Shown here: one piece after another, positions 34,467-56,841 of the stretch
How the letters are laid out: every line of letters starts with the position of its first letter
Numbering within the stretch: position 1 is the stretch's first letter
Source: Bacteroidales bacterium
GTDB lineage: Bacteria; Bacteroidota; Bacteroidia; Bacteroidales; M50B96
Reading direction: 5' to 3'
DNA: 64,000 nucleotides
NCBI GenBank assembly: GCA_021740905.1
Contig: JAIOYV010000016.1
Location: 18,828 to 82,827, forward strand
Position numbers and translations under genes: made by a program
Notes under the pieces: model-generated
The model's database searches: none
What the model saw: only the letters and a program-made list of their open reading frames with translations
Told to the model about the DNA's origin: nothing

Positions 34467-34531
34467 AATCCGAGTAGTTTTCCAAATGCCTGTAAGGGTA
34501 AACCTGTTATTAACTGTATTATAGATAACAA

Positions 34532-38793: not shown

Positions 38794-40290
38794 ATGAAAA
38801 AAATATACAATAAAGTCAGTTTAACTATTTGTTTATTAGTAGTCATAAGCGGTGTTTTTATGTTCAATTCCTGCAAAAAGGATTTTCTTGAAATAAAACC
38901 CCAGGGAATTTTAACCGAAGCTGTATTTCTAAAAACTGAAAATGATGCAGTATTGGCGACAAACGCTATTTACAACTCAGCCAGGGAGTGGAATTTCTAC
39001 ACAGGCGGCTATCCAATCCTGGATATTTTGTCGGACGATGCCAACAAAGGCAGCAACCCGGGCGATGGAGCTTTCCTTAATTTGTTTGAAACATTCCAGT
39101 TTACGCCGAGTAATGGCGATATAAGCCGATGGTATTCTGCACTGTACAAAACAATCAGACGAACGAATATTGTAATTGAAAAAGTACCCGAAATAAATAT
39201 GGACGAAGCCTTGAAACTTCGCTTAGTATCAGAGGCAAAATTTATCAGGGCGTATTGTTATTTCAATTTGGTTGTGGCGTTTGGCGATGTACCCTTGGTG
39301 CTCATAACGAATCCACCTGCAGATTTGGATCGAACTTCCAAAGAGCAAATTTATAATGAAGTGATCATCACCGATCTTCAATCGGCCATCGACAATCTAC
39401 CGGAAAAAAGTGAATATCCATCTGATGATCTGGGTAGGGCAACAAAAGGGGCTGCAAGGGCAACCATGGCAAAAGTTTATCTTTATCGTGGCGATTTCGA
39501 AAAGACCGCAACGTATGCACTGGATGTGATCAATTCAAACGAATACAGCCTTGAACCAGATTTTTCAGATGCCTTTTCACTTGAAGGTCAGTTTGGGGTA
39601 GAATCAATATTCGAAATTGGTGCATTCCCCGAAGAAAACTTTACCAACGGGGGGAATCAATATGCAAATACGCAGGGAGTCAGGGGATCCCCTAACAAAG
39701 GCTGGGGCTTTAACAGGCCCTCGGTCGATTTAATCAACAGCTTCGAAGCCGGCGATCTCCGTAAAGACGCAACCGTAATTTTCCTAGGTGAGACTATCGA
39801 TGGCGTTTTAATAGAAGGGGATGTAAACACACCCGATGTTACGTATACTGATGACACTGAAACTGTGATTAAGGAAATGGAGACCTATAATCAAAAGGTT
39901 TGGACTCCGGGTATCACTACGGTTGAAGAATGGGGTTACAATGTGCGACTGATTAGATATGCCGAGGTGTTGCTCTTTGCTGCAGAGGCTCTCAATGAAA
40001 ATGGAAATCCTGCGGAAGCCTTAGTATACCTAAATGAAGTGAGAACACGAAGCGGACTAAGTCCAATTGCAAGTACCGATGTCAATACTCTACGGGAACT
40101 GATCTGGAAAGAAAGACGATCGGAATTGGCCATGGAAGGTTCGAGATATTTCGACCTGGTCCGTCAAAATCGTGCAGAAGCTGTTTTAGGTCCTTTGGGT
40201 TTTGTGAAAGGGAAACATGAATTATTTCCTATTCCGCAAAATGAGATTGATATTTCAGGTGGGAAATTACAGAAAAACCCAAACTGGTAA
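38794..40290 (+). CDS. RagB/SusD-family outer-membrane lipoprotein
   Basis: FMFNSCKKDFLEIKPQGILTEAVFLKTENDAVLATNAIYNS...AKFIRAYCYFNLVVAFGDVPLV...EARTRSGL-type and ERRSELAMEGSRYFDLVRQ motifs. Confidence 0.95.
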   Translation: MKKIYNKVSLTICLLVVISGVFMFNSCKKDFLEIKPQGILTEAVFLKTENDAVLATNAIYNSAREWNFYTGGYPILDILSDDANKGSNPGDGAFLNLFETFQFTPSNGDISRWYSALYKTIRRTNIVIEKVPEINMDEALKLRLVSEAKFIRAYCYFNLVVAFGDVPLVLITNPPADLDRTSKEQIYNEVIITDLQSAIDNLPEKSEYPSDDLGRATKGAARATMAKVYLYRGDFEKTATYALDVINSNEYSLEPDFSDAFSLEGQFGVESIFEIGAFPEENFTNGGNQYANTQGVRGSPNKGWGFNRPSVDLINSFEAGDLRKDATVIFLGETIDGVLIEGDVNTPDVTYTDDTETVIKEMETYNQKVWTPGITTVEEWGYNVRLIRYAEVLLFAAEALNENGNPAEALVYLNEVRTRSGLSPIASTDVNTLRELIWKERRSELAMEGSRYFDLVRQNRAEAVLGPLGFVKGKHELFPIPQNEIDISGGKLQKNPNW

Positions 40291-40371: not shown

Positions 40372-41622
40372 ATGAAAAAGATTATTAGCAGTTTAATTTT
40401 GTTAAGCTTGACCTTTGGCCTTGTTTTTTTTAATGGGTGTAAAGAAGATGATGATCCAATAGTAGAATTTACTTTGGAAAGCTTAAAAAGTGGCAATCTG
40501 GAATTAGATGGAGCTACATCAGCAACCAATGTTCCTGTAGATCAACCTATAATTGCAGTATTTGCAAACGATATAGATGAATCTACAGTAGCCAATTCCA
40601 TTACATTGACCAGAGGTACAACAGATGTTCCCTTTACAACTTCTGTTAGTGGTAATACACTGACCATTACGGTTACGGGTGGTTTACTAACCGGAGCTTC
40701 TTACAACTTGACTATTGCATCTACCTTAGAATCCATTCAGGGTGCTGCATTTTCTAGCTTAACGGTTACTTTTATAAGTATAGGGATAGGAATTGATACC
40801 CCTCCCCAAAAAGACTTCCAAACCTTGTATTTGCAATTTGATGGAAGTATTACCGACTTAGTAGGCTTTAATACAGCCGGCTTTGAGCAGGTGACTTATA
40901 CAACCGACCGGTTTGGAAAAGCCGATGGCGCCGCCAGTTTCAATGGAAGTACAGCTCCCGGAAATGGCGACATTGTTGAGCTTTCGGGCGATAAACTGAT
41001 CACTCCAAGCATGACCATAAGTACCTGGTTTAAGGCGAGCAGTGCCGATTTTACAAATTCCCGGATATTATTTGGTTTAGCTACCGAAAGAGGATACTTC
41101 ATGGAATTAGGTGGCGACGCTGTTGCCTGGATGAAATTGGCAACTTCGCACAAGGTAAGCCCCGATTCAAGCAGCCATTATTTTGGAACAGCTTGGACCG
41201 ATCCAAATGGCGACGGTTTAGTTGGTGGACAAACTGTTTATGATTATACTGGAAGTATTTCCGATTTAGTGGCAGACAAATGGTCGCACCTTGTTATGAC
41301 ATATGACGCAACGACCAGCCTTAAAACCATTTATATTGATGGAATTAAATTGATGCAGGTTGATTTGAATTTAGATTCTCCTGAATGGGGACTTACCGAT
41401 TTGGCCATTGCTGATAAAATGGACGCCACAGGTGATCCTGTAACAGGCATTGATCCTGTGCTCACTTTAGGCTATTTCTGTAGCAGGGCCAATACGGCAA
41501 CCGGATGGTCAGTTTATAGTGGAGCCGAAAATACATTCAAAGGTGCGATGGATGATTTCCGCTTATTCGAAAAAGCATTAACCGAATCGGAAGTACAAGC
41601 TCTTTATAATTCTGAAAAATAA
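40372..41622 (+). CDS. Surface lipoprotein with Ig-like (Big_5-type) and LamG-like domains
   Basis: Lipobox FFNGCKEDD; VFANDIDESTVANSITLTRG; FNGSTAPGNGDIVELSGDKLITPSMTISTWFKA...MDDFRLFEKALTESEVQALYN. Confidence 0.8.
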   Translation: MKKIISSLILLSLTFGLVFFNGCKEDDDPIVEFTLESLKSGNLELDGATSATNVPVDQPIIAVFANDIDESTVANSITLTRGTTDVPFTTSVSGNTLTITVTGGLLTGASYNLTIASTLESIQGAAFSSLTVTFISIGIGIDTPPQKDFQTLYLQFDGSITDLVGFNTAGFEQVTYTTDRFGKADGAASFNGSTAPGNGDIVELSGDKLITPSMTISTWFKASSADFTNSRILFGLATERGYFMELGGDAVAWMKLATSHKVSPDSSSHYFGTAWTDPNGDGLVGGQTVYDYTGSISDLVADKWSHLVMTYDATTSLKTIYIDGIKLMQVDLNLDSPEWGLTDLAIADKMDATGDPVTGIDPVLTLGYFCSRANTATGWSVYSGAENTFKGAMDDFRLFEKALTESEVQALYNSEK

Positions 41623-41944: not shown

Positions 41945-43921
41945 ATGAAGTACATATTAATTATTCTATTTGTCACTGCCGCCGTGCTCATGTCATCCTG
42001 TAAAAAAGAAGAAACTGTTGAACATGGAACAGTCTCCCTCGTATCGTTGCAGGCTGGCGATGTGAATATTGGTTTTACGATCAGCAATATTAATATCCCC
42101 TTCAACGAACCCTTTGTTGCAGTTTTCGACAAAGCTATCGACACGATTCAGATAGCCGACAAAATTTATCTGAGGGATGATCAAAACAATTTGGTGAAAT
42201 TTTCTTTCACCGTGTCAGAGGATGGAAAAACCCTGGAAATGTTGCCACTTCAACAAATCGCTCCGCTAAAGAATTATTTTTTTGTATTTACCGATGAAAT
42301 AAAAGGTGCTCAGCAAGAGATATTCGAAGGAATGGACGTATTGTTTACGACCATGCAAAGCACTCTTTCATTGCTTAGCGCGGTTTCTCAGGAAATTAAT
42401 CTTCTCGATGCAGAAAGAATAACTGATGTTAGCTTGATGCCATCTTTCAAAATCACCTTCAATCAGGCATTAAATAAAGAAACCATCAATGCAAGCACAG
42501 TAAGATTGGCCTATCCGGGGGCAAATATTCCCTTGGCATTTTCTTTTGAAAATGATGATCAAACTGTACTCATCACCACTACCTCGCAGCTTGACCATTA
42601 CCAAAGATTCCTTCTTGATTTATCAACTGGCATTGTGGCAGTGGATGGTTCTGTTTTCGATGGTTTTTCTGTACATTTTTATACCGAATTAGATTCAACT
42701 CCAAAATTCCCTGTCATTTCTGATGATGATCTTTTAACCCTTGTTCAGCATCAAACTTTTAAATACTTCTGGGACTTTGGTCATCCGGTTAGCGGAATGG
42801 CCAGAGAAAGAAATACTTCGGGCGACATTGTGACAAGTGGGGGAACCGGATTTTGTATAATGGGAATCCCGGTGGCTATTGAAAGAGGATTTATTACCCG
42901 ATCGGAAGGAGTAGATAGATTGGAGACCATCGTGAATTTTTTAGATCAGGCAGATCGGTTTCATGGTGCATGGTCGCATTGGATAAATGGAAGTACCGGC
43001 CAGGCCATTCCATTCGGCACGCAGGATAATGGGGGCGATTTGATCGAAACAGCCTTCCTGATACAGGGATTATTAACGGTGCGGCAATACTTGAATCCGA
43101 TGGATATTCAGGAAGGGGAAATCATCACCCTGATCAATGAATTATGGGAAGAAGTAGAATGGACCTGGTACACCAGAGGCGGACAAAATGTGCTTTACTG
43201 GCATTGGTCGCCCAATTATGAATGGGCCATGAACATGCAAATCAGGGGATATAACGAAGGTTTGATTGCGTATATCCTTGCCGCCTCATCACCTACCTAT
43301 CCCATAACAGCTGCCGTTTATCATTCAGGGTGGGCAAACAACGGGCAAATGGCGAATGGTAATTCGTACTTTGGGATTGAACTCCCTTTGGGATATAGTT
43401 ATGGCGGGCCCTTGTTCTTCGCTCATTATTCATTCTTAGGGCTGGATCCAAGAAATCTCTCGGACAATTACGCCAATTATTGGACTCAAAATACTAACCA
43501 TAGTTTAATTAATCAGGCCTACTGCGAAGCCAATCCCAAATCTTGGGTAGGCTATAGTTCCGAAGCCTGGGGGCTTACTGCCAGCGACAATCAGAATGGT
43601 TATTCGGCACATTCGCCAACCAACGACCTTGGGGTAATCACGCCAACCGCTGCAGTATCATCGCTTCCGTACACACCCGTTCAATCCATGGAAGCAATTC
43701 GATTTTTTTATTACAAACTGGGCGATAAATTATGGGGTGACTATGGATTTTATGATGCCTATAACATTACTGAAAGTTGGATAGCCGATTCTTATATTGC
43801 CATCGATCAGGGTCCTATGGTGGTGATGATAGAAAATTACAGGACAGGTTTGTTATGGGATCTTTTTATGACTTGCCCCGAACTAAGCACAGGATTTCAA
43901 AAACTGAGTTTCACCCATTAA
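41945..43921 (+). CDS. Ig-like domain + glucoamylase-family (GH144-like, endo-beta-1,2-glucanase type) lipoprotein
   Basis: Lipobox LMSSCKKEE; LLTLVQHQTFKYFWDFGHPVSGMARERN...TSGGTGFCIMGIPVAIERGFI...AHSPTNDLGVITPTAAVSSLPYTP...YIAIDQGPMVVMIENYRTGLLW. Confidence 0.85.
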   Translation: MKYILIILFVTAAVLMSSCKKEETVEHGTVSLVSLQAGDVNIGFTISNINIPFNEPFVAVFDKAIDTIQIADKIYLRDDQNNLVKFSFTVSEDGKTLEMLPLQQIAPLKNYFFVFTDEIKGAQQEIFEGMDVLFTTMQSTLSLLSAVSQEINLLDAERITDVSLMPSFKITFNQALNKETINASTVRLAYPGANIPLAFSFENDDQTVLITTTSQLDHYQRFLLDLSTGIVAVDGSVFDGFSVHFYTELDSTPKFPVISDDDLLTLVQHQTFKYFWDFGHPVSGMARERNTSGDIVTSGGTGFCIMGIPVAIERGFITRSEGVDRLETIVNFLDQADRFHGAWSHWINGSTGQAIPFGTQDNGGDLIETAFLIQGLLTVRQYLNPMDIQEGEIITLINELWEEVEWTWYTRGGQNVLYWHWSPNYEWAMNMQIRGYNEGLIAYILAASSPTYPITAAVYHSGWANNGQMANGNSYFGIELPLGYSYGGPLFFAHYSFLGLDPRNLSDNYANYWTQNTNHSLINQAYCEANPKSWVGYSSEAWGLTASDNQNGYSAHSPTNDLGVITPTAAVSSLPYTPVQSMEAIRFFYYKLGDKLWGDYGFYDAYNITESWIADSYIAIDQGPMVVMIENYRTGLLWDLFMTCPELSTGFQKLSFTH

Positions 43922-43962: not shown

Positions 43963-45300
43963 ATGAAAATGAATAAAATTTCTTTAATAAACACATATTG
44001 GCTTGCCATTTTAATGATACTAAGTAGTTGTGGAAGTGGCAATAAAACCTCAGCTCCCGCATCTGTCGGACCTTTAGAGGAATCACCAATACCAACCCTT
44101 TCTACAGATGAGTTATTGGATTTGGTTCAGGAGAAAACCTTCAGGTATTTCTGGGATTTTGCCGAACCGGTCAGTGGTTGGGCCAGGGAACGTTCTCAAG
44201 ACCTGGAAACGCTCACATCAGGCGGTACCGGTTTTGGCATCTCCTGTTTCCCGGTGGCTGTGAACAGGGGCTGGATATCAAGAGACCAGGCCATTCAGCA
44301 ACTAAACAAAATAATGTCATTTTTGGAAAATGCTTCAAGCTATCATGGTGCATTCGCGCATTGGTATGATAATACAGGGAAAACTAAAAATTTTAGTGCT
44401 CAGGATAATGGAGGTGATATTGTTGAAACCGCATTTTTAATACAGGGTTTATTAATAAACAGACAATATTTTTCGGGCGATAATGAGGAGGAAAAAAATC
44501 TCCGGGATAGGATTACAACGATTTGGGAAAATGTAGAATGGGACTGGTACACACAAGGCAAAAAATCTCTTACCTGGCATTGGTCGGCCTATCAGGGATT
44601 TGTAATTAACCAGCCCATTGGTGGTTGGAACGAGGCCTTAATTGTTTATGTGTTAGCCGCAGCTTCTCCCACGCACACCATCGACAAAGAAACGTATGAC
44701 AATGGCTGGGCGCGTAATGGGGCTATGAAAAACAATGCCACCTACTACGGTCATATTTTGCCCTTGGGAGAGCCGATGGGGGGACCTTTATTTTTATCTC
44801 AATATTCGTTTATTGGCATAGACCCCAGAGAGCTTGAAGATCAATATGCCAATTACTTCGATCAAAACAGGGCGCACTCGCTTATCAATTATGAATATTG
44901 CAAGGCCAACCCAAAAGGATACAAAGGCTATAGTGAAAATTGCTGGGGACTCACTGCCAGCGATGATATTAATGGCTATGCTGCCCATAGTCCAACCAAC
45001 GATTTGGGAGTTATTACGCCAACGGCAGCACTTTCAGCTTTTCCCTATACCCCTGAAGAATCAACAAAAGCACTCGAACATTTTTACTATACATTGCACG
45101 ACAAATTGTGGGGGCCTTACGGTTTTTATGATGCTTTTTCCGAGCATTTCAACTGGACTGCCGATGGTTATTTAGCTATTGATCAAGGCCCTATTGTAGC
45201 CATGATTGAAAACTATCGAACGCAACTATTATGGTCTCTTTTTATGAGCGATCAAGAGATAAAAAATGGCTTAGACAAACTCGGATTCACACAAAAATAA
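43963..45300 (+). CDS. Glucoamylase-family (GH144-like) lipoprotein
   Basis: Lipobox LSSCGSGN; LLDLVQEKTFRYFWDFAEPVSGWARERS...LTSGGTGFGISCFPVAVNRGWI...YLAIDQGPIVAMIENYRTQLLW; paralog of preceding. Confidence 0.88.
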   Translation: MKMNKISLINTYWLAILMILSSCGSGNKTSAPASVGPLEESPIPTLSTDELLDLVQEKTFRYFWDFAEPVSGWARERSQDLETLTSGGTGFGISCFPVAVNRGWISRDQAIQQLNKIMSFLENASSYHGAFAHWYDNTGKTKNFSAQDNGGDIVETAFLIQGLLINRQYFSGDNEEEKNLRDRITTIWENVEWDWYTQGKKSLTWHWSAYQGFVINQPIGGWNEALIVYVLAAASPTHTIDKETYDNGWARNGAMKNNATYYGHILPLGEPMGGPLFLSQYSFIGIDPRELEDQYANYFDQNRAHSLINYEYCKANPKGYKGYSENCWGLTASDDINGYAAHSPTNDLGVITPTAALSAFPYTPEESTKALEHFYYTLHDKLWGPYGFYDAFSEHFNWTADGYLAIDQGPIVAMIENYRTQLLWSLFMSDQEIKNGLDKLGFTQK

Positions 45301-45303
45301 GTT

Positions 45304-48300
45304 ATGATAAATGTTTTCATCAGGATATGTGCAGTTTTGGTTGTTTTGCTTTATACATGCACAATTGCTACTGCCCAGATAAGGACTCTTGATGAATGTG
45401 AAAACAAGGATGGCTGGTCGCTGATAAAATCCGATGGTGTCAATCTCAATTTATCAAATGAAGAAGGAATAACAGGCAACGCGATTCGGTTCGATTATGA
45501 TTTCACGAAAGGTACAGGCTATGGAGGAATTCAGAAACTCTTCCCGATTGACCTCCCCGAAAATTACGAATTTACCTTTTTTGTCAAAGCCGAGTCACCC
45601 GCCAATAATTTCGAAATTAAATTTATCGACAGCACAGGAAATAATGTCTGGTGGGTAAACAACCGCAATTATTCGTTTCCCGGCGATTGGAAAAAAATCC
45701 ACATAAAAAAAAGACATATCAATTTTGCCTGGGGCCCGACAAACGATCAGACTTTAAAACGTGTTGACCGCATTGAATTTACCATTGCATCGTTCGTGGG
45801 TGGCAAAGGCACAATTTGGATTGATGATCTGAAGTTTGAACCCCTTCAGCCTGAATCAACGTCCTATCCTCAACCTAAAATAAAAGTTGCTTCGTTTGAA
45901 AAGGAACATAATGCTGATTATATACTTGATAATTCAAATGCTACCTATTGGAACAGTAGGGGAATTAAAGATCAGTACCTATTGATTGATTTTACAACCC
46001 GCAGGGAATTTGGCGGTTTTCAAATCAATTGGCTGAAGGATTTTCATGCCGTAAGTTTTGAAATTCTGACTTCGGAGGACGGTGAGGAATGGGAACCAGT
46101 TTATGCTGTTAAAACAAACCAGGGGGATGTCAGTTTTATCAGCTTACCGGAAACAGAGGCGAAATTCGTGAAGATAAATCTTCTAAAGCCAAATTCAGAA
46201 AAAGGCTTTGCAGTGCGCGAACTTAAATTTCTGGATATTAAAAATTCGTTGACCCGGAACGACTTCCTGATTTACGCAGCCAAAAACTCACCGGAAGGAA
46301 ATTACCCCCGGTATTTTTCAGAACAGGCTTCATACTGGACAATCACCGGTGTTAACAACGATGTAAAGGAAGCCCTGATAAACGAAGATGGAATGGTTGA
46401 AGTGGAAAAGGCCCGGTTTTCGATCGAACCCATTATAAAAACAGGTGATTCCCTTTATAACTGGAGCAATGTGAAAGCGAGGCAATCCTTGGGCGGTTCG
46501 GAAGATAAATGGGATTTTAATTTTGTTCCCTCTGTTACCTGGCATTGCGATGATCTTAAATTTGAAACCGCTGTTACAGCAAGTGGAGAGGCCAATAAAA
46601 ATTCGAAACTTGATATTCGATACACTTTTAAAAACCTCTCGGATAAGCCAAACGATTTTGAGTTTTGTTTGTTGATCCGGCCTTTTCAGGTCAATCCCTA
46701 CTACCAATTCCTAAATCTTACAGGAGGTGTTGGAAAAATCCAATCCATCAGGGAAGAAGAAGACTATTCCATATCTGTTGATGATAAAGTTTTGCTCTTT
46801 CAGAAAAAATACGATGCCTTCGGTGCAGGTGTTTTTGATGATGGGAATATAGTAGATCTTCTTCGTTGCGGAAAAATGCCTTTGAATAAATCAGCTGTCG
46901 ATCAAAATGGGCTGGCCAATGGCGTAATTAAATACTCCCTGCACCTCAATCCTGGTGAAACTACTGAGCTATACCTTGTAGTTCCATTTTACGGCAATAA
47001 AACCGACATTACACCTGGCAATTATAATGTGGCCAATGATTTTACCCAGTCAAACGAATTCTGGAAAGCGAAAGTCGGGCATGTTAAATTTGATTTGCCG
47101 GAATCAGCCGACAGGATTGTAAATACCTACAAATCAAATCTGGTATATATCTTAATCAACAGGGATAAGGCCGGAATCCAGCCCGGGTCAAGATCGTATG
47201 AGCGAAGCTGGATCCGTGATGGCGCGCTCACGTCATCAGCTCTCCTTAAATCGGGCATCACCGTGGAAGTAAAAGATTTTATCGATTGGTACACAAGCTA
47301 CCAGTACGAAAACGGAAAGGTTCCCTGTGTAGTTGATTCAAGAGGGCCTGATCCGGTTCCCGAAAACGACAGTCAGGGAGAACTGATCTACCTGATTCGC
47401 GAATATTTTAACTTTACGCATGATACGGTTTTCCTTCAATCAAAGAATGAGCATATACTAAAAGCTGTTGATTATATTGAATCGCAGATTGCCCAACGAT
47501 CAACCGATCAGTATAAAAATGGGAACGACAGCGTGCGGGTCTTCTATGGCCTGGTGCCGGAATCAATCAGCCACGAAGGTTATTCCGCTAAACCTATGCA
47601 TTCGTACTGGGACAATTTCTTTACCTTGAAAGGTTTGAAGGACGCTGCCGAGGTTCAAAAAATTCTTGGCGAAAAAGAATCGTATGAACGCATTAGAAAA
47701 GTTCGCGATACATTTAAGGAAAATCTGTACAACTCGCTTGAACTTGCGATGAAAAATAAAAACATTTCCTATCTCCCCGGTTGTGCCGAGCTTGGCGATT
47801 TTGATGCGACCTCAACAACAATTGCCCTGACTCCATGCAACGAACTTATCAACTTGCCTGTACCACAGGTCTATAACACTTTTGATAAGTATTATGAATT
47901 TTTCAAAAACAGGAGAGACGGAAAAAAAGACTGGATTAATTATACTCCTTATGAAAATCGCTTAATCGGTTCATTTATTCTATTAGATCAACCCGAAAAA
48001 GCTCACGAGTTAATAGAGTTTTTCCTAAACGACCAACGCCCCCAGGGATGGAACCATTGGGCCGAAGTGGTTTGGAAAGATTATCGCACGCCCCGCTATA
48101 TCGGCGACATGCCGCACACCTGGTGTGGCAGCGATTTTATCAATGCCATCCGCTCCATGTTTGTGTACGAAAATGAGTACGACCAATCGCTTGTTTTGGC
48201 TTCTGCCCTTTATCAGGATTGGATTGATGCTCCGTCCGGGATGTCTGTGGAAAACCTACCCACTTATTATGGCGAGATTTCATATTCCATAAAAAAAGAC

Positions 48301-48486
48301 CGGGAAAAATATGTTTTTTCAATTTACGGAGACATCAAGCTACCTGAAAACGGGATTAAGATAAAGAGCTTTAACCGATCGAAGCTCCCGAAAAGAATAA
48401 GTGTGAACGGAGTTGAGGTTCATGATTTTGATGAGAAGAATATTCCTGTCAAAGAGTTTCCGGCAGAAGTAGTAATTTATTATTAA
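45304..48486 (+). CDS. Secreted protein with discoidin (F5/8 type C)-like domain and six-hairpin-glycosidase-like catalytic domain
   Basis: Signal peptide ...LYTCTIATAQ; NADYILDNSNATYWNSRGIKDQYLLIDFTTRREFGGFQINW; RSYERSWIRDGALTSSALLKSG...WNHWAEVVWKDYRTPRYIGDMPHTWCGSDFINAIRSMF. Confidence 0.75.
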   Translation: MINVFIRICAVLVVLLYTCTIATAQIRTLDECENKDGWSLIKSDGVNLNLSNEEGITGNAIRFDYDFTKGTGYGGIQKLFPIDLPENYEFTFFVKAESPANNFEIKFIDSTGNNVWWVNNRNYSFPGDWKKIHIKKRHINFAWGPTNDQTLKRVDRIEFTIASFVGGKGTIWIDDLKFEPLQPESTSYPQPKIKVASFEKEHNADYILDNSNATYWNSRGIKDQYLLIDFTTRREFGGFQINWLKDFHAVSFEILTSEDGEEWEPVYAVKTNQGDVSFISLPETEAKFVKINLLKPNSEKGFAVRELKFLDIKNSLTRNDFLIYAAKNSPEGNYPRYFSEQASYWTITGVNNDVKEALINEDGMVEVEKARFSIEPIIKTGDSLYNWSNVKARQSLGGSEDKWDFNFVPSVTWHCDDLKFETAVTASGEANKNSKLDIRYTFKNLSDKPNDFEFCLLIRPFQVNPYYQFLNLTGGVGKIQSIREEEDYSISVDDKVLLFQKKYDAFGAGVFDDGNIVDLLRCGKMPLNKSAVDQNGLANGVIKYSLHLNPGETTELYLVVPFYGNKTDITPGNYNVANDFTQSNEFWKAKVGHVKFDLPESADRIVNTYKSNLVYILINRDKAGIQPGSRSYERSWIRDGALTSSALLKSGITVEVKDFIDWYTSYQYENGKVPCVVDSRGPDPVPENDSQGELIYLIREYFNFTHDTVFLQSKNEHILKAVDYIESQIAQRSTDQYKNGNDSVRVFYGLVPESISHEGYSAKPMHSYWDNFFTLKGLKDAAEVQKILGEKESYERIRKVRDTFKENLYNSLELAMKNKNISYLPGCAELGDFDATSTTIALTPCNELINLPVPQVYNTFDKYYEFFKNRRDGKKDWINYTPYENRLIGSFILLDQPEKAHELIEFFLNDQRPQGWNHWAEVVWKDYRTPRYIGDMPHTWCGSDFINAIRSMFVYENEYDQSLVLASALYQDWIDAPSGMSVENLPTYYGEISYSIKKDREKYVFSIYGDIKLPENGIKIKSFNRSKLPKRISVNGVEVHDFDEKNIPVKEFPAEVVIYY

Positions 48487-48510: not shown

Positions 48511-50583
48511 ATGGCAAATCAGGAGGTGCAAGTACATCACAAAACCAAAGCGGAAGATCGGATTCCTTTTAAACAATTAGTTGCTTATGGTTTTGGAGGT
48601 ATCATTCCCATTGCCCTCTTCAACATAGCGGGACAGCTTATGGGCTTAATCGGAAATATAAGCCTTGGATTAAGCGCTCTTTGGTTGGGTGTAATTTTGA
48701 TTATTCCCCGTTTGTGGGATGCTGTTTCCGATCCTATTGTCGGCCATATCTCCGACAACACCCGCACCCGTTGGGGCCGTCGTCGCCCTTACTTACTCGT
48801 TGGCGGAATTTCCGTGGCGCTTAGTTTTGTACTCATGTGGTGGATCCCCGATGGGGAATGGGTACATTCATGGTTCCCCAGCGATGCCGGCTATCAATGG
48901 TTTCAACTTTTCTATATCCTTTTTTGGCTCCTCATCTTTTTCACAGCTTGCACTATTTTCGAGATCCCCCACGGTGCCTTAGGTATGGAAATGTCTTCCG
49001 ACTACCACGAACGCACCCGCCTGTTCAGTTCCAAAAGTTTTCTTGGTAATCTTTTCGCGATGAGTACACCCTGGCTTTTTGCCCTCGCCAACATGGAAAT
49101 TTTTAAGGGCATCGGGGGTAACGAAGCCGATGGTATGCGCTATGTTTCCATGATGGTTGCCGCCATATTGATCCCGCTTTCCTTCTGGTGGTTTTTTACC
49201 GTCCGCGAACCGGGTTTCAAAGTGGCAAAAAAACAAGAAAAAACACCCTTTTGGAAAAGTATGAAACATACTGCCAGCAACAAAACATTTCTTCGGCTGG
49301 TAATGATCATTTTCACATTGGCCATGGGCTTTAATTTCGTTAATTTGCTCGGGTACTACATTCCCATCTTTTATATTTTTGGAGGCGATAAAAGTGCAGC
49401 CGTCTACTTGCTTGGAATCAATGGTACCATCTGGGCCATCACCGGGCTGGTAGCTGTTTTTCCGCTGAATTGGCTGAGTTCGAGATTTGGAAAACGAAAA
49501 ACCATTATTATTGCCATCTCCCTCATGGTTTTGGCACAACTATCCAAAATCATCTGTTACAACCCGACGTATCCCTACCTCATTATCATTCCCACTATTT
49601 TGCTTTCAAGCGGCATGTTATTTTTCTTTACGCTGGGATCTTCCATGGTGGGCGATATATGCGATGAAGATGATTTAAAGACAGGTTACCGCTCCGAAGG
49701 AAGCTACTACTCAATCTTCTGGTGGTTTATAAAAATGGGCACCGCATTAGCCAGCTTAGTTGCCGGGTTATTGATCGTATTTACTCAATTTGACGAAACC
49801 CAAGTGACAAGTGTCGATGATTTGCAAGGAAGCATCAAAGAAACGCTGAGTATGGCCCATAATTGGGGAGGCTATGATAGTATCGACAGCACCAATACAG
49901 ATTGGCTCAAAAACACCAAAACATATAGTATGGAAGCCCTCAAAGAATCAAAAGAATTTTTGAGCTATCTTAACTTAGAATCCTTGAAGAATCAAGAGAA
50001 GCAAGACCAGGTTGCCACAACAGCTCAAATTGAGGAGGAAAATTTGATAGAAAGTTTAGTGGAAAAAACGACAACCACTATTGCTGAACTGGAACAACTT
50101 CAAACACGGATAGAAAAGATAGACACTCATGGGCAACCCAGCGAGCTAAAAAGTATTTTAGGGGAAGCCATCCCATTAACCTTGCGAACACCGCTTGAAA
50201 AGGCCCGGTTTAATTCATCAAAGCTCTTATCCCATCTTGAAGCTCAATCTTTGGAAAACGATAATAGCCAGGAGCATTACGTAAAGCTTATCAAAAACAT
50301 AACAGAGATAAATAATCGACTCACAAGTAGTAAGGCAACATTGGGTTTGGATTCCTTCACGAAAGAACTCAACAGTATTGATGAAGGAATAGTGCCACTC
50401 ACAGAACAGGCCCCTTATACGCTTATCATGATGCGCGTGGTTGAGATTGGACTACCGCTTTTACTAAGCCTCATCTCTATTATTTTCGCGTTTCGTTACT
50501 CCTTGACGGAGGATCGTTGCTATGAAATAAAAGAAGCTCTTGAGATAAGAAATAAGGCACGGTTAATTGGAGAGGCAAATTAG
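48511..50583 (+). CDS. MFS transporter, GPH (glycoside-pentoside-hexuronide:cation symporter) family, with large C-terminal insertion
   Basis: PRLWDAVSDPIVGHISDNTRTRWGRRRPYLLVGG; GTALASLVAGLLIVF; hydrophilic ~200-aa segment before last TM helix. Confidence 0.88.
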   Translation: MANQEVQVHHKTKAEDRIPFKQLVAYGFGGIIPIALFNIAGQLMGLIGNISLGLSALWLGVILIIPRLWDAVSDPIVGHISDNTRTRWGRRRPYLLVGGISVALSFVLMWWIPDGEWVHSWFPSDAGYQWFQLFYILFWLLIFFTACTIFEIPHGALGMEMSSDYHERTRLFSSKSFLGNLFAMSTPWLFALANMEIFKGIGGNEADGMRYVSMMVAAILIPLSFWWFFTVREPGFKVAKKQEKTPFWKSMKHTASNKTFLRLVMIIFTLAMGFNFVNLLGYYIPIFYIFGGDKSAAVYLLGINGTIWAITGLVAVFPLNWLSSRFGKRKTIIIAISLMVLAQLSKIICYNPTYPYLIIIPTILLSSGMLFFFTLGSSMVGDICDEDDLKTGYRSEGSYYSIFWWFIKMGTALASLVAGLLIVFTQFDETQVTSVDDLQGSIKETLSMAHNWGGYDSIDSTNTDWLKNTKTYSMEALKESKEFLSYLNLESLKNQEKQDQVATTAQIEEENLIESLVEKTTTTIAELEQLQTRIEKIDTHGQPSELKSILGEAIPLTLRTPLEKARFNSSKLLSHLEAQSLENDNSQEHYVKLIKNITEINNRLTSSKATLGLDSFTKELNSIDEGIVPLTEQAPYTLIMMRVVEIGLPLLLSLISIIFAFRYSLTEDRCYEIKEALEIRNKARLIGEAN

Positions 50584-50633: not shown

Positions 50634-53093
50634 ATGGCATTTAAAATAAAAGGAGATAGTTTTTATCTGAACGACAAAAAGGTGTTTCTCAATTCGGGCG
50701 AGATTCATTATTTTAGGATTAAGCGCGAGCTGTGGGATAAGCATTTAGAAGCGGCCAATGAAGCCGGTTTAACAACTATCAGCACCTACGTTCCGTGGGC
50801 ATGGCACGAATCGGAAGAAGGTATTTTCGATTTTGATGGCACATCCTGCCCGGAACGCGATCTCACTGGTTGGCTGGAACGATGTCAGGCTCATGGATTA
50901 AATTGCATTGTAAAACCGGGGCCCTTTATTCTGGCAGAGTTCCGTGGGGCCGGACTCCCCGATTGGTTTATGGATCAGTATGGCGATGCGTGTAAGATGC
51001 GCAACAGCAAAGGCGAAATTGTACAAAGCGATGGTGTCAGCCTGTTCAATAATGATTATTTGGAAAAGGTAGCTCTCTGGTATGATAAAATCATGCCCTT
51101 CATCAGTAAACGCGAAATATCAGTCGGTGGCCCGATCATTATGATGCAAATTTGTAATGAGATCGGCGTATTCTCCTGGTTGGCAAAACAAGGTGATTAC
51201 GGCAATGCGGTGAAAGACCGTTTCATTTCATACTTGACAGATAAATTTTCAAGTATTGCTGAAGTAAATAGTGTATGGGGAACCGATTATCAGGATTTCG
51301 ATCAGGTAGTTCTTCCACCGGATGGCAATCTTCCTTATGCTTCAAAGGGCGATCGTGGTCGTGATTTTGAATGGCACAATTTCTGGCGAAAGTATTATGG
51401 CGACTATCTCAGAATGTTGACCGACATGGCCCGGGAAAGAGGTGTCAGTGTTCCTCTTTATCACAATCTTCCAGGTTGGATCTATGGAAACGGCTATGAA
51501 TTCCCGGTCAATATCACCATGTACGAAGATTTATATGAAGATAAAAGTGAGATCATTTTTGGTGTCGACCACATTCCTGAATTTTGTTCCTATCGCAACC
51601 TGCACGACGACCGCATTATTAATGACATAACGTTGGCCATGCAGGGCAACAAGCCACTATTTGCCGCTGAGTTTCAGAGTGGATCGCGCGAATATCATGT
51701 GGTAACCAATCCGCGCGAGATGGAACTCTTCTACAAAGCGAGTGTTGCCAATGGCCTGGTTGGTTGGAACTACTATATGTTTTCGCAGGGTCGCAACCCA
51801 AGCCGCAAAGGATATTCCGGCGACACTTTTTACTGGTTCAACCCGCTAACACCGGAAGGCGAGCGCACCTCGGCCTTCCCTTTGGTGAAACGAATGAGTC
51901 AAATTATTAACACCTCAGAAAGCCTGATTGTAAATGCAAAACGCAAAGCGGAAGTATGCGTCCTTTTCTATCCCCCCTATTACGCAACCGAGTTGGAAAG
52001 ACCAATTGGAAAGGAATGTGGGCTACAATTCACTGCATCTGCCATCCGAAGGCCTGCCTATTTCGACGGTTTGCTGAAAGTGCTTCAGATTCTTAATATT
52101 GATTATGATATGGTTGATCTGAGTAAAGCTTCCGTAGATACATTGAGCAACTATAAACAGGTATGGGCTTTCAGCACCGATGAGATGAATGCAAAGGATC
52201 AGCAAATCCTTGTTGATTATACAAAAGCTGGCAGGAACACGGTTCTTTTCCCTTATTTGCCCGACCGTGAAATGTCGCAGAAACCATGCACAATCATCCG
52301 CGATGCGCTTTCAATAGCACCTTCCGGAAGCGAAATTATCGATTCGCCATTGATCGATGTGTATGATTTGAAAGATATTAAGTGTGCTAATCCACAGATA
52401 TTCTATTCCGAAGAGTCGCTTGCCGGTGCCGAAGTTATTGCCCGAACGATTAATGGATCTGCATGTGGATTTTCAAAATCGCTGGGAATAGGAACCGTAA
52501 TTCACCTCGGAACCTGGATAGGTTTTGACACCGAAGGGCATATACCTGTCTATGAGGCAATTCTGAATAAATCGGCTGCAAAGCTCAGGCAAGCATCAAC
52601 CAACAATGGTAATATCGTTATAAGGGAACGTTTCACAGATGATCATTCCGCCATTCTTTTTGTAGGAAATTATTACAATGAAGAACAGATTGGCAGCGTA
52701 AGCTATACCCATCCGAAAAGTGGTGAAGCCATCACAATTCCTTACTCGAAGGAGGAGATGTTATGGCCGGCAACATACAGTGTATTAACACCCGTGTGCT
52801 TAAACGTTTCTGACGGGCTTACCATTTTACACAGCACTTCCGACATTCTCGGTGTCTCAGTGATCAGCGAACAACTTGAGATTACCCTATACGGAGACCG
52901 CGATTTGGCTGGGGAGATAGTTTTTGAAGGCGAAAATGTGAAAAGCATTAAGTCTGTAACTGTTGAGGGGGAGGTTGTTAATATAGAGAAGGATGATAAG
53001 CGAGTGGCATTGTACTACCAACACAAGCACAAGGATCAAATTGTGCTAAAAATTGAAATGAAGGTAGGGACTGTAATGAAACTTTTAAAGTAA
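50634..53093 (+). CDS. GH35-family enzyme (nominal beta-galactosidase), apparently cytoplasmic
   Basis: GEIHYFRIKRELWDKHLEAANEAGLTTISTYVPWAWHESEEGIFDFDG; CIVKPGPFILAEFRGAGLPDWF; MMQICNEIGVFSW; no signal peptide. Confidence 0.85.
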   Translation: MAFKIKGDSFYLNDKKVFLNSGEIHYFRIKRELWDKHLEAANEAGLTTISTYVPWAWHESEEGIFDFDGTSCPERDLTGWLERCQAHGLNCIVKPGPFILAEFRGAGLPDWFMDQYGDACKMRNSKGEIVQSDGVSLFNNDYLEKVALWYDKIMPFISKREISVGGPIIMMQICNEIGVFSWLAKQGDYGNAVKDRFISYLTDKFSSIAEVNSVWGTDYQDFDQVVLPPDGNLPYASKGDRGRDFEWHNFWRKYYGDYLRMLTDMARERGVSVPLYHNLPGWIYGNGYEFPVNITMYEDLYEDKSEIIFGVDHIPEFCSYRNLHDDRIINDITLAMQGNKPLFAAEFQSGSREYHVVTNPREMELFYKASVANGLVGWNYYMFSQGRNPSRKGYSGDTFYWFNPLTPEGERTSAFPLVKRMSQIINTSESLIVNAKRKAEVCVLFYPPYYATELERPIGKECGLQFTASAIRRPAYFDGLLKVLQILNIDYDMVDLSKASVDTLSNYKQVWAFSTDEMNAKDQQILVDYTKAGRNTVLFPYLPDREMSQKPCTIIRDALSIAPSGSEIIDSPLIDVYDLKDIKCANPQIFYSEESLAGAEVIARTINGSACGFSKSLGIGTVIHLGTWIGFDTEGHIPVYEAILNKSAAKLRQASTNNGNIVIRERFTDDHSAILFVGNYYNEEQIGSVSYTHPKSGEAITIPYSKEEMLWPATYSVLTPVCLNVSDGLTILHSTSDILGVSVISEQLEITLYGDRDLAGEIVFEGENVKSIKSVTVEGEVVNIEKDDKRVALYYQHKHKDQIVLKIEMKVGTVMKLLK

Positions 53094-53103
53094 CTAAAAA
53101 ATG

Positions 53104-53202
53104 GAACGCGGATCATACGGATTTTCAAACGCGGATAAAACCGGATAATGATTTAAGAAATCAGCGTAAATCAGCGTTGCTTGCATCCGCGTTATCCGCG
53201 TT
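53104..53202. repeat. Imperfect intergenic palindrome (REP-like)
   Basis: AACGCGGATCATACGGATTTTCAAACGCGGAT ... AAATCAGCGTAAATCAGCGTTGCTTGCATCCGCGTTATCCGCGTT. Confidence 0.75.
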
Positions 53203-53248
53203 CAAGTTTAAACTAAACGACGTTGAATCTGTCATAAAAAACAACAAT

Positions 53249-56200
53249 ATGTCAAAACGATACATAAAAAACCCGCTGGGGCTTTCCATTCACTTTCTTG
53301 AAAATGGATTGCTGAAGAGCATTGATGTTGATCCAATCAGAATTGGCCTCAAAGCCGCAACCCCTTTTTCAAAATCAGGGGTAAACCTCTATTTGAGAAA
53401 ACGCTCACAATCTTTAAAATACAAAGCACTTTTAGGCCCCGAAAGTAATAGCCGGTTTACAATAACAGAAGATGCGTTTATTGCCAAAGGCAGTTGGGAT
53501 GGTCTTGATTATGTATGCACGCTGCAACTATCGAAAAAAAGTTTGAGTTGGCAGTGGCGTGTTGAAATCACAAATACCTCCGACAATGCTGTAGAACTTG
53601 ACATGATTTACTTACAGGATGCCGGGCTAAAACAAATTTCTGACGCACCCACCAACGAATATTATGTGAGCCAATACCTTGATCGGCTTATCCTTGATGA
53701 TCCTCACTATGGTTCTGTGATTTGCTGTCGGCAGAACAATAAAGAAGCTACCGGCAATCCCTGGTTAATGATGGCTTGTAAAAATTCAGCAACGGCGGCA
53801 AGTACCGATGGGATTCAGTTTTATGGCAAAACGTTCAAAGAAACAGGAATTCCGGAAGGTTTGCTTGCAGAGAAACTGGCAGGGGAATGTTCCGGCGAAT
53901 TATCTATTCTTGCCTTGCAGGAAAAACCTTTCACAATATCCGCGAAGGGTCATCATAAAAGTGTATTTGTGGCGACCTATTTTCATGATCATCCTCTGGC
54001 GACATCAGCAAAAGATTTGGAGCGATTATCAGCTCTGATGTTGGAATTCGAAAATAAAGATTCGGGGAACGACCCGGATGAATGGCTTTCTCCTGAAAAA
54101 AATAGTTTCACCTCGGCTGTCCTTTTAGCTGTTGATGATTTGAACAACAAAGAACTTGATCAGTTTTTTGGAAAAGACCGACGCTATATTGAGGAAGAAA
54201 ACGGACAGTTACTATCCTTTTTTTACAAGGAAAACAACCACGTTGTGTTACGTGCAAAAGAAGTGCTTGTGGACCGGCCACATGGACATATCATGCAGGC
54301 CAAAGCGGACTATACACCTGATGAAAATATTGTATCCACCACTTCGTACGCCTTTGGTGTTTTCAATTCGCAACTAACACAAGGCAACACAAATTTTAAT
54401 GCTTTGCTTTCCATAAGTGCAAGCCAGTTTAATCTCGAAAGGGAAACAGGCCAGCGAATATTTGTTCAAATCGATGGTCAGCACTATTTACTGGGTATTC
54501 CTTCCGCTTTTGAGATCGGACTAAACCACTGCCGATGGATCTATAAACAGGGCAATTATTGCTTTCAGGTTCGCAGCTGGACATCAAAAACAGCCCCGCA
54601 GGTTAATATGGACTTCAAAGTTCTTAGTGGGCCTGTTGTAAAATTGTTGATTACAAATCATTTTGATGAGGCCAATGGATGGACGTTTAGCTCTGGGAAT
54701 ACAAGGGGAGAGTACATCGTTAAACCGAACACGGGCAGTTTGATTGCAGGTAAATTTCCAAATGCCCAATTCGGTATGCTGGTTAATAGTATAAATTCTG
54801 ATTATCACGTTTATGGTGATGAAGTGCTGTATCCAAATAAGAGAAGTCATGGAGGATCGTTTTTAAATCTTGAAGTAGCGGAAACTTCAAATTTTTGTAT
54901 GAGTTTTATAGGTGAAATATCCAGCCCAACTCACACACCTAAAATTGAAGATGCAGATAAACAGTGGCTTGCCGATTGTCAGGATGCCCAAACCGCCTGG
55001 CAGGATTTGTCCTTAAATTTAAGCCTAAAAGGCAAGCAGAAAGACATCGCAGCGATGCAGGAAATCCTTCCCTGGTATGCCACAAATGCACTTACCCATC
55101 TGTTGACACCGCATGGTTTGGAACAATTTAGCGGAGCCGCATGGGGAACACGAGATACCATGCAGGGGCCGTTTGAATTGTTATTGAGTTTGCAAAAGTA
55201 TGATGAAGCCAGGCAGATACTTCGCATCATGTTTTCAAATCAAAATATGGATGGCGGTTGGCCTCAGTGGTTTATGTTTGATAGCTATTTTACCATACGG
55301 AGCGATAGCGCTCATGGAGATATTTTTTACTGGTGTATCATTGCCCTCAGTTCTTATATTAAAGCTACCGGCGATTATACCTTCCTCGAAGAAATTTTGC
55401 CTTACTACCACGAAAAGGGTGTTGAAGTCGCCGAAAAAACACCACTTAGCGAACACATCGACAGGCTTATAAAGATGATCGTTGATTCATTCATCCCCGG
55501 TACAGCATTGGTCCCTTTTGGGGGTGGCGACTGGAACGATTCCATGCAACCGGTTAACAAGGATTTAGCCCAACGTTTGATTTCGTGCTGGACGGTCGAG
55601 CTTAATTATCAAGCCTTCAACGAATATCAGACAGTTTACGAAAAGCTTGGACAGAGTGAAAAGGCCGCAAATTTAAAAGAAATTTGCCGACAGATTAAAG
55701 CCGACTTCAATACCTATTTAATAAAAGATGGAGTGGTTGGCGGGCATGGGCTGATTGAGGCGGATGGCACCATCAGTTTGTTGCTTCACCCCAGCGATAC
55801 GAAAACAAATATTCAGTATCGCTTGCTGCCAATGATCCGTGGAATTATTAGCGGGATTTTTACGCCCGAACAGGTTCGGCATCACCAAGCAATTATAGAA
55901 CAGCATTTGAAAGGCCCCGATGGTGCCCGTTTGATGAACCGGCCACCCAAATACAATGGGGGCATTCAAACGATTTTCCAGAGGGCCGAAAGCAGTTCAT
56001 TCTTTGGGCGCGAAATTGGGATTATGTACACTCATGCTCATCTTCGATATGCCGAATCGCTGGCCCGCACTGGTAAAGCGGATGCCTTTGTAAAGGCACT
56101 TCGACAGGCAAATCCTGTGTCTTACCGGGAGATTGTTTCATGTGGCGATTTTCGTCAATCAAATTGTTATTACAGCAGTTCGGATGTTACCTTCCGAAAC

Positions 56201-56602
56201 CGCTACGAAGCCGATGAACGTTACGAAGAGCTAATAGCCGGAAAGATCACCCTGAAAGGGGGATGGCGGATTTATTCCAGCGGGCCGGGTATTTATATGG
56301 GTCTTATCGTTTCGCGTTTGCTTGGTTTGCGTACCGAATTTGGAAATACCATCCTCGATCCCGTAATCCCTGTTTCGATGGATGGTCTGGAAGCCTCTAT
56401 CGACTTCATGGGGCATCCGGTAACATTCAAATATACAGTGAAAAAAAATTGTTTTGGGCCTAAAGCCATATCCATTAATGGTAAAGAGGTCGAATTTACC
56501 CTGGAAGACAATCAGTACCGTGCCGGAGGTGCAGTTATCCCAACCGATCAATTTGTGGCAATGTTAAATCAAAAGGAAAATAGGATTGAATTACAACTCT
56601 AA
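53249..56602 (+). CDS. GH94 phosphorylase, 1,2-beta-oligoglucan phosphorylase (SOGP)-like
   Basis: Start MSKRYIKNPLGLSIHFLENG at 53249 preferred over 53177 (upstream part is REP sequence). Phosphorylase-type GTRDTMQGPF, GGWPQWFMFD, ALVPFGGGDWNDSMQPV, RPPKYNGGIQTIFQRAESSSFFGREIGIMYTHAHLRYAESLA; length ~1117 aa fits SOGP rather than short cellobiose phosphorylases. Confidence 0.82.
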   Translation: MSKRYIKNPLGLSIHFLENGLLKSIDVDPIRIGLKAATPFSKSGVNLYLRKRSQSLKYKALLGPESNSRFTITEDAFIAKGSWDGLDYVCTLQLSKKSLSWQWRVEITNTSDNAVELDMIYLQDAGLKQISDAPTNEYYVSQYLDRLILDDPHYGSVICCRQNNKEATGNPWLMMACKNSATAASTDGIQFYGKTFKETGIPEGLLAEKLAGECSGELSILALQEKPFTISAKGHHKSVFVATYFHDHPLATSAKDLERLSALMLEFENKDSGNDPDEWLSPEKNSFTSAVLLAVDDLNNKELDQFFGKDRRYIEEENGQLLSFFYKENNHVVLRAKEVLVDRPHGHIMQAKADYTPDENIVSTTSYAFGVFNSQLTQGNTNFNALLSISASQFNLERETGQRIFVQIDGQHYLLGIPSAFEIGLNHCRWIYKQGNYCFQVRSWTSKTAPQVNMDFKVLSGPVVKLLITNHFDEANGWTFSSGNTRGEYIVKPNTGSLIAGKFPNAQFGMLVNSINSDYHVYGDEVLYPNKRSHGGSFLNLEVAETSNFCMSFIGEISSPTHTPKIEDADKQWLADCQDAQTAWQDLSLNLSLKGKQKDIAAMQEILPWYATNALTHLLTPHGLEQFSGAAWGTRDTMQGPFELLLSLQKYDEARQILRIMFSNQNMDGGWPQWFMFDSYFTIRSDSAHGDIFYWCIIALSSYIKATGDYTFLEEILPYYHEKGVEVAEKTPLSEHIDRLIKMIVDSFIPGTALVPFGGGDWNDSMQPVNKDLAQRLISCWTVELNYQAFNEYQTVYEKLGQSEKAANLKEICRQIKADFNTYLIKDGVVGGHGLIEADGTISLLLHPSDTKTNIQYRLLPMIRGIISGIFTPEQVRHHQAIIEQHLKGPDGARLMNRPPKYNGGIQTIFQRAESSSFFGREIGIMYTHAHLRYAESLARTGKADAFVKALRQANPVSYREIVSCGDFRQSNCYYSSSDVTFRNRYEADERYEELIAGKITLKGGWRIYSSGPGIYMGLIVSRLLGLRTEFGNTILDPVIPVSMDGLEASIDFMGHPVTFKYTVKKNCFGPKAISINGKEVEFTLEDNQYRAGGAVIPTDQFVAMLNQKENRIELQL

Positions 56603-56813: not shown

Positions 56814-56841
56814 AAAGACTTACAGCTATTTGTAAGTCTTT
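56814..56841. terminator. Stem-loop terminator candidate
   Basis: AAAGACTTACAGCTATTTGTAAGTCTTT. Confidence 0.6.

What the first reader, a model, noticed from the sequence alone, without database searches (positions are those of the whole stretch)
50634..53093. Cytoplasmic GH35 in a beta-1,2-glucan locus: probably not a beta-galactosidase
No signal peptide, and the gene sits between the transporter and the SOGP-like gene. From memory, a GH35 enzyme of Ignavibacterium album was reported as a beta-1,2-glucosyltransferase. An equivalent activity here would remodel sophoro-oligosaccharides before phosphorolysis.
Basis: partly seen in the sequence, partly recalled or inferred. Interest (0 to 1): 0.6.

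Follow-up and report, generated by a model that had tools for sequence, protein, structure and literature searches.

The report
Sophorose glucosyltransferase partnering a β-1,2-glucan phosphorylase
A gene that automatic annotation would call a β-galactosidase almost certainly encodes a cell-interior enzyme that moves single glucose units between β-1,2-linked glucose sugars, and it is so tightly tied to the neighbouring phosphorylase (in one genome the two genes are fused) that its likely job is to rescue the two-glucose leftover, sophorose, which the phosphorylase cannot use.

Summary
In detail: an intact 819-aa GH35 gene without a signal peptide lies at 50634-53093, between a GPH/MFS sugar transporter and a SOGP-type GH94 gene, in a SusCD/GH144 β-1,2-glucan locus.

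"Not a β-galactosidase" is supported. The best PDB match is the Ignavibacterium album β-1,2-glucosyltransferase IaSGT (38% identity, 517 bits; GlmA ≤217, β-galactosidases ≤89). Window and IaSGT clades are sisters (100/99 support). Catalytic, −1, +1 and aglycone-pocket residues of IaSGT are identical, including R349 and L100, where 27/27 Bacteroidota β-galactosidase-type sequences differ.

New here: about 80 Bacteroidota relatives keep the order transporter–GH35–SOGP (SOGP adjacent in 65/67 testable loci; restriction-modification genes intervene in the other two). One locus has an in-frame GH35–SOGP fusion. In 247 same-order genomes all 15 with this GH35 also have SOGP (16 have SOGP). Characterised SOGPs cannot phosphorolyse sophorose, and I found no cytoplasmic GH1/GH3 β-glucosidase in this genome. 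I propose that the enzyme disproportionates sophorose to glucose plus sophorotriose for SOGP, like MalQ serving MalP. All 77 relatives replace the three +2-subsite residues of IaSGT (Q/F/Y→A/Y/S), so acceptor preference may differ. Activity itself is untested.

The parts
50634..53093 (+). GH35 protein, 819 aa, cytoplasmic; predicted beta-1,2-glucosyltransferase (SGT type)
51156..51161 (+). codons N175-E176 (-1 recognition; acid/base, = IaSGT N175-E176)
   Evidence: alignment; roles from PMC8861115
51669..51671 (+). codon E346, nucleophile (= IaSGT E343)
51687..51689 (+). codon R352 (= IaSGT R349, key +1 subsite residue; R in 77/77 relatives, F/L in 27 beta-galactosidase-type sequences, A in PhGlmA)
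50931..50939 (+). codons L100 to E102 (aglycone pocket / -1 versus +2 switch of IaSGT; L100 is C in 27/27 beta-galactosidase-type sequences)
50949..50951 (+). codon A106 (IaSGT Q106, +2 subsite): clade-specific change, A in 77/77
51813..51818 (+). codons Y394-S395 (IaSGT F391-Y392, +2 subsite): clade-specific change, Y-S in 77/77
53249..56602 (+). SOGP-type GH94 1,2-beta-oligoglucan phosphorylase (ORF from TTG 53177; homologs point to ATG 53249)
   Evidence: LpSOGP +1/+2 residues conserved where the printed alignment reaches
48511..50583 (+). GPH/MFS sugar:cation symporter, likely importer of beta-1,2-glucooligosaccharides
   Evidence: adjacent to GH35 in 74/75 testable loci
45304..48486 (+). 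secreted 1060-aa protein, F5/8C-like domain plus GH94/GH116-like fold, no catalytic family assigned; co-conserved with SGT (51/57)
43963..45300 (+). GH144 endo-beta-1,2-glucanase homolog, lipoprotein-type signal
41945..43921 (+). GH144 with N-terminal Ig-like domains, lipoprotein-type signal
40372..41622 (+). lipoprotein with LamG/Big_5 domains, surface glycan-binding candidate
38794..40290 (+). SusD-like lipoprotein
   Evidence: family judged from the sequence, not searched separately
35538..38783 (+). SusC-like TonB-dependent transporter
   Evidence: family judged from the sequence, not searched separately
33894..35536 (+). ECF sigma factor and FecR anti-sigma pair, presumed regulator of the locus
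56814..56841 (+). terminator-like hairpin after SOGP (12-pair stem)

Best explanation
The gene encodes a cytoplasmic, retaining GH35 beta-1,2-glucosyltransferase of the IaSGT kind: E346 attacks the non-reducing glucose of sophorose or longer sophoro-oligosaccharides (Sopn), E176 acts as acid/base, and the glucosyl unit goes to the 2-OH of another glucose unit held at subsite +1 rather than to water. Its most likely physiological job is to work in a cycle with the adjacent SOGP: SOGP removes Glc1P from Sopn (n>=3) and stops at Sop2; the GH35 enzyme converts 2 Sop2 to Glc + Sop3; SOGP takes Sop3 back to Sop2 + Glc1P. Net: Sop2 + Pi to Glc + Glc1P, the same logic as MalQ with MalP. Shown here by sequence: family, residues, lack of a signal peptide, locus, coupling to SOGP, lack of cytoplasmic GH1/GH3. 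Inferred: the transferase reaction in this protein (about 0.85 likely), its use of Sop2 as acceptor, and the cycle (about 0.5-0.6).
For: Closest solved relatives are the IaSGT structures (517 bits vs 217 for GlmA and <=89 for beta-galactosidases; Foldseek ranks 1-12 are IaSGT, E 4e-68, then GlmA). Window clade + IaSGT clade monophyletic with 100/99 support. Catalytic, -1, +1 and aglycone residues identical to IaSGT and conserved in 68-77 of 77 relatives; diagnostic R349, L100 and the G278-W279 loop are not found in 27 Bacteroidota beta-galactosidase-type sequences. MFS-GH35-SOGP order: MFS adjacent 74/75, SOGP adjacent 65/67; in-frame GH35-SOGP fusion in L064; all 15 SGT genomes of 247 carry SOGP (16 have it; Fisher p=4e-23, not corrected for kinship). 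In the Ignavibacterium-like genome G148 the SGT sits beside the other beta-1,2-glucan phosphorylase type (CGS-type GH94, 529 bits). SOGP does not use Sop2 (PMC3960220, PMC5309861); +1/+2 residues of LpSOGP are kept here. No GH1; all four GH3 carry signal sequences, as do the GH3 of related loci.
Against: IaSGT itself is poor with Sop2 as sole substrate (Km 120 mM, kcat/Km 0.069 per s per mM) and prefers alkyl/aryl glucosides as acceptors (PMC8861115), so a Sop2-disproportionation role is not established even for it. The clade-wide +2 replacement could weaken rather than improve Sop2 as acceptor. Beta-glucosidases outside GH1/GH3 were not searched. A GH35 in another GH144 locus proved to be a beta-1,2-galactosidase (PMC11739564), so context alone proves nothing. 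No activity data.
Confidence: 0.7

Rival explanations
1. Glucoside-modifying transferase: the enzyme uses Sop2/Sopn as glucosyl donor but its true acceptors are alkyl or aryl glucosides (or a cell metabolite), making sophorosides; SOGP only shares the donor pool.
For: This is what IaSGT does best in vitro (acceptor Km 0.02-0.4 mM; PMC8861115). The hydrophobic aglycone pocket L100/V179/F180/L183 is kept, while the +2 sugar-subsite residues are not.
Against: No glucoside-making or glucoside-using gene was seen to be conserved in the loci, whereas SOGP is nearly always adjacent, once fused. It leaves the fate of cytoplasmic Sop2 unexplained.
Confidence: 0.25
2. Cytoplasmic exo-beta-1,2-glucosidase: the altered +2 region has turned the transferase into a hydrolase that splits Sop2 to two glucoses, replacing the cytoplasmic GH3 of Listeria.
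For: Fits the missing cytoplasmic GH1/GH3 and the Lin1839/Lin1840 precedent (PMC4757417).
Against: +1 residues that hold the acceptor sugar tightly in IaSGT are all conserved (77/77), which favours transfer; IaSGT shows no hydrolysis (PMC8861115).
Confidence: 0.1
3. Ordinary or beta-1,2-specific beta-galactosidase (as Bxy_22780).
For: Most GH35 enzymes are beta-galactosidases, and a GH35 in a GH144-containing SusCD locus of Bacteroides was one (PMC11739564).
Against: Phylogeny separates it from 15 beta-galactosidase-type GH35 sequences (100/99); positions L100, N275, R349 and G278-W279 are IaSGT-type.
Confidence: 0.03
4. Exo-beta-D-glucosaminidase of the archaeal GlmA kind (the name the nearest NCBIfam model would suggest).
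For: NCBIfam NF041127 hit at 229 bits; similar domain layout and C-terminal size.
Against: Far below that model's cut-off of 1500 bits; the GlcN-specifying Asp of GlmA is Asn here (N175), and R349 is Ala in PhGlmA.
Confidence: 0.02

Closest known systems
IaSGT, IALB_1185 of Ignavibacterium album (GH35 beta-1,2-glucosyltransferase, EC 2.4.1.391; PDB 7vkw-7vl5, 7x87; PMC8861115)
   Same: Fold, catalytic pair, -1, +1 and aglycone-pocket residues, no signal peptide, placement in a GH144/GH94 beta-1,2-glucan locus.
   Different: 38% identity; +2 residues Q106/F391/Y392 replaced by A/Y/S in the whole clade; about 100 residues longer C-terminally; partner is SOGP-type GH94 and a GPH/MFS importer instead of CGS-type GH94 and an ABC importer.
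Lin1839 (SOGP) + Lin1840 (cytosolic GH3 beta-glucosidase) of Listeria innocua (PMC3960220, PMC4757417)
   Same: Cytoplasmic SOGP with an adjacent enzyme assigned to the Sop2 that SOGP cannot use.
   Different: Listeria hydrolyses Sop2 with GH3; here the adjacent enzyme is a GH35 transglucosylase and no cytoplasmic GH1/GH3 was found.
MalQ (amylomaltase) with MalP (maltodextrin phosphorylase) (from general knowledge)
   Same: Logic: a disproportionating enzyme converts oligosaccharides too short for the phosphorylase into glucose and longer ones.
   Different: Alpha-1,4 linkage, unrelated enzyme families; an analogy only.
Archaeal GlmA exo-beta-D-glucosaminidases (5gsl, 5gsm, 6jow, 8oug)
   Same: Nearest non-SGT GH35 group by sequence and fold.
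   Different: Asp in place of N175, no R349, different plus subsites.
Bxy_22780 beta-1,2-galactosidase of Bacteroides xylanisolvens (PMC11739564)
   Same: GH35 in a SusCD locus with GH144.
   Different: Described as phylogenetically far from SGT; galactose-specific hydrolase.

Membership tests
GH35 (CAZy family / Pfam PF01301) | sequence similarity to GH35 over the catalytic barrel, above curated cut-off | tested here: met
   146 bits vs cut-off 27; conserved catalytic Glu pair
beta-1,2-glucosyltransferase (SGT, EC 2.4.1.391) | monophyly with IaSGT to the exclusion of GlmA and beta-galactosidases | tested here: met
   100/99 support; the program warns of long branches, and only one GlmA sequence was used
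beta-1,2-glucosyltransferase (SGT, EC 2.4.1.391) | catalytic and -1 residues Y52, E102, N175, E176, N275, E343, Y378 | tested here: met
   all identical
beta-1,2-glucosyltransferase (SGT, EC 2.4.1.391) | +1 residue R349 and aglycone pocket L100, V179, F180, L183 | tested here: met
   all identical in the window protein
beta-1,2-glucosyltransferase (SGT, EC 2.4.1.391) | +2 subsite contacts Q106, F391, Y392 as in IaSGT (a feature of IaSGT, not known to define the activity) | tested here: not met
   A106, Y394, S395; same in 77/77 relatives
beta-1,2-glucosyltransferase (SGT, EC 2.4.1.391) | transfers beta-1,2-linked glucose without hydrolysis | not testable with these tools
   needs TLC/NMR with Sop2-Sop5
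GH35 beta-galactosidase | galactosidase-type active site (Cys at the position of L100, F/L at R349) | tested here: not met
   27/27 Bacteroidota beta-galactosidase-type sequences have C and F/L; the window has L and R
Archaeal GlmA exo-beta-D-glucosaminidase | Asp before the acid/base Glu (GlcN recognition) | tested here: not met
   N175 in the window, D in PhGlmA
SOGP (neighbouring GH94) | SOGP N-terminal domains and LpSOGP +1/+2 residues (Q621, D631, D760, R907, R916, N138, Y141) | tested here: met
   Pfam SOGP_N/2nd/4th; residues read from the alignment

The most novel reading that the evidence does not exclude
The GH35 clade is the disproportionating half of a two-enzyme (once fused) pathway that together behaves as a sophorose phosphorylase, with a +2 subsite re-shaped to accept sophorose as acceptor: a MalQ/MalP-like cycle for beta-1,2-glucans in uncultured Bacteroidales.
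Probability: 0.45. Interest if true: 0.58.

Novelty: new variant of a known kind. Interest (0 to 1): 0.42.

Why it matters
IaSGT is the only characterised enzyme of its kind I found, and its physiological role was left as speculation. A clade of at least 80 genomes in which the same kind of enzyme is locked to, and once fused with, a phosphorylase that cannot use sophorose makes that role directly testable with two recombinant proteins. It would also correct automatic annotation, which would name these genes β-galactosidase or exo-β-glucosaminidase. The clade-specific +2 subsite is an immediate target for mutational study of acceptor choice in transglycosylases.

Tried and rejected
β-galactosidase and glucosaminidase readings: rejected on phylogeny and active-site residues. 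β-1,2-galactosidase (Bxy_22780 precedent): considered, not compatible with the residues. GH3 of the related loci as the cytoplasmic Sop2 hydrolase: rejected, all found carry hydrophobic N-terminal signal-like stretches. The second GH94-like hit of the genome (C80): judged from its sequence and its glycogen-synthase-like neighbour it is a debranching-type enzyme, not a sophorose phosphorylase. G602, the one SOGP genome without a detected SGT: restriction-modification genes precede SOGP and the contig then ends, so it is not a counter-example. L036 and L074, without SOGP: R-M genes follow the SGT and the contig ends. AlphaFold model of the GH35: good overall (pLDDT 84), but substrate loops 101-105, 351-356 and 384-399 are below 50, so the +2 site could not be modelled. 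Comparison with SOGP loci of Bacillota (mutual exclusion of GH3 and SGT): not possible, as only one genome-contig scan was allowed and no handle outside Bacteroidota was at hand.

Full report
What is there. The ORF at 50634-53093 (+) is a complete 819-aa GH35 gene, the only GH35 hit in its 6.5-Mb genome. It has no signal peptide. It lies in a run of same-strand genes: ECF sigma/FecR (33894-35536), SusC/SusD-like, LamG lipoprotein, two GH144 lipoproteins, a secreted 1060-aa protein, a GPH-type MFS symporter, GH35, SOGP-type GH94, then a terminator-like hairpin at 56814-56841. GH144 (PDB relatives CpSGL 5gzh/5gzk) and SOGP (LpSOGP 5h3z, 602 bits) identify the substrate as β-1,2-glucan.

Family. 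phmmer against the PDB gives IaSGT at 517 bits, archaeal GlmA at ≤217 and β-galactosidases at ≤89. The AlphaFold model (pLDDT 84) finds IaSGT structures at ranks 1-12. In a maximum-likelihood tree the window clade and the IaSGT clade (with two genomes found here, G148 and G362) form one group with 100/99 support, with PhGlmA outside it and 15 β-galactosidase-type GH35 of Bacteroidota further out (the program warns of long branches). In 396 phylum-wide genomes the scores are bimodal: only the window genome, G148 and G362 exceed 550 bits; the next is 91.

Active site. Numbering is that of PMC8861115. Y52, E102, N175, E176 (acid/base), N275, E343 (nucleophile), Y378, R349, G278, W279, D309, L100, V179, F180 and L183 are all identical in the window protein and conserved in 68-77 of 77 close relatives; the least conserved is V179, which is V or L. 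R349 and L100 matter because the IaSGT authors note that many homologs lack them; this clade keeps them. In 27 Bacteroidota β-galactosidase-type sequences L100 is C, R349 is F or L, and the G278-W279 loop is missing (this is a distant alignment, so the loop statement is weaker than the L100 one). By contrast the three +2 contacts of IaSGT, Q106, F391 and Y392, are A, Y and S in the window and in all 77 relatives, while G362 keeps Q/F/Y and G148 has Q/F/F. The change is fixed in this clade; its effect is unknown.

Coupling to SOGP. A genome-contig scan returned 80 loci (60-82% identity), nearly all Bacteroidales or other Bacteroidota MAGs. Where at least 1 kb of flank exists, the MFS gene is adjacent in 74/75 and SOGP in 65/67; the two misses have restriction-modification genes after GH35, in one of which SOGP follows. 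In L064 the two are one 1923-aa reading frame, GH35 residues 1-809 followed directly by SOGP from residue 812; it could be an assembly or sequencing error, since the genes are often only a few nucleotides apart, but the junction shows no sign of one. In 247 genomes of the same order SOGP occurs in 16 and SGT in 15, all inside the 16; the sixteenth, G602, has R-M genes before SOGP and then the contig end. Fisher p = 4e-23 ignores kinship. In the Ignavibacterium-like genome G148 the SGT stands next to a GH94 of the cyclic-glucan-synthase type instead (529 bits), matching the description of the I. album cluster in PMC8861115. So the transferase is tied to two different phosphorylase subfamilies acting on the same glucan.

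How it probably works. SOGPs from Listeria and Lachnoclostridium phosphorolyse Sop3 and longer but not Sop2 (PMC3960220, PMC5309861), and their subsite residues are kept in the window SOGP (Q650, D660, D788, R936, R945, N160, Y163 in the numbering from TTG 53177; read). Cytoplasmic Sop2 is therefore a predicted dead end. Listeria solves this with a cytosolic GH3 (PMC4757417). Here no GH1 was found in the genome, all four GH3 have signal sequences, and the 30 GH3 found in the related loci all have a hydrophobic N-terminal stretch. A β-1,2-glucosyltransferase would convert 2 Sop2 to Glc + Sop3, which SOGP then uses: net Sop2 + Pi to Glc + Glc1P. This is the logic of MalQ with MalP (analogy from general knowledge). 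Shown: genes, residues, localisation signals, coupling. Inferred: the reaction of this protein, Sop2 as acceptor, the cycle. Weak point: IaSGT has a Km of 120 mM for Sop2 alone and favours alkyl/aryl glucosides, so either the altered +2 site improves Sop2 acceptance or the physiological acceptor is something else. Other β-glucosidase families were not searched.

Caution from precedent. A GH35 in another SusCD/GH144 locus turned out to be a β-1,2-galactosidase (PMC11739564). Context alone is not enough; the residue and tree evidence carries the case here.

Novelty. The activity class is known (EC 2.4.1.391). New relative to what I could read: a large sister clade with a fixed, different +2 subsite, its near-obligate pairing with SOGP, a natural fusion, and an explicit, testable cycle. 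I rate it a new variant of a known kind.

Noticed in passing
window 45304-48486; homologs in 60 of 80 loci: Secreted 1060-aa protein with an F5/8C-like domain and an unassigned remainder whose predicted fold (pLDDT 80) resembles GH94 phosphorylases and GH116; no Pfam catalytic family. Co-conserved with the SGT in 51/57 testable loci and beside it in G362: candidate new glycoside hydrolase family of beta-1,2-glucan loci.
   Followed up: partly
L036:12502-14945, L037:12585-17633, L074:12625-13363, L150:11019-13141: Different restriction-modification systems (N6-methylase/HSDR, type III-like, BsuBI/PstI + Eco57I-type) lie exactly between the SGT and SOGP genes, or just after SGT or before SOGP at a contig end, in four genomes; the repeated use of one operon junction is unexplained.
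   Followed up: partly
L064:10001-15769: In-frame GH35-SOGP fusion, 1923 aa, in a contig labelled Limisphaerales although its GH35 part is 73% identical to the window protein: misbinning or transfer.
   Followed up: partly
window 53098-53209: Imperfect palindromic element (CGCGGAT...ATCCGCG) between GH35 and SOGP; 16 matches across the genome, several over 90% identical: a dispersed repeat family.
   Followed up: yes
window 32224-33594: Secreted protein with two near-identical repeats of about 180 aa and a T9SS sorting tail just upstream of the sigma factor; similar-looking repeat proteins occur in several of the other beta-1,2-glucan loci, so it may be a glycan-binding part of the locus.
   Followed up: no
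L036:4523-8086, L037:1-3477: Secreted GH3 fused to GH144 in one polypeptide (1188 aa in L036), in the closest relatives of the window locus.
   Followed up: no
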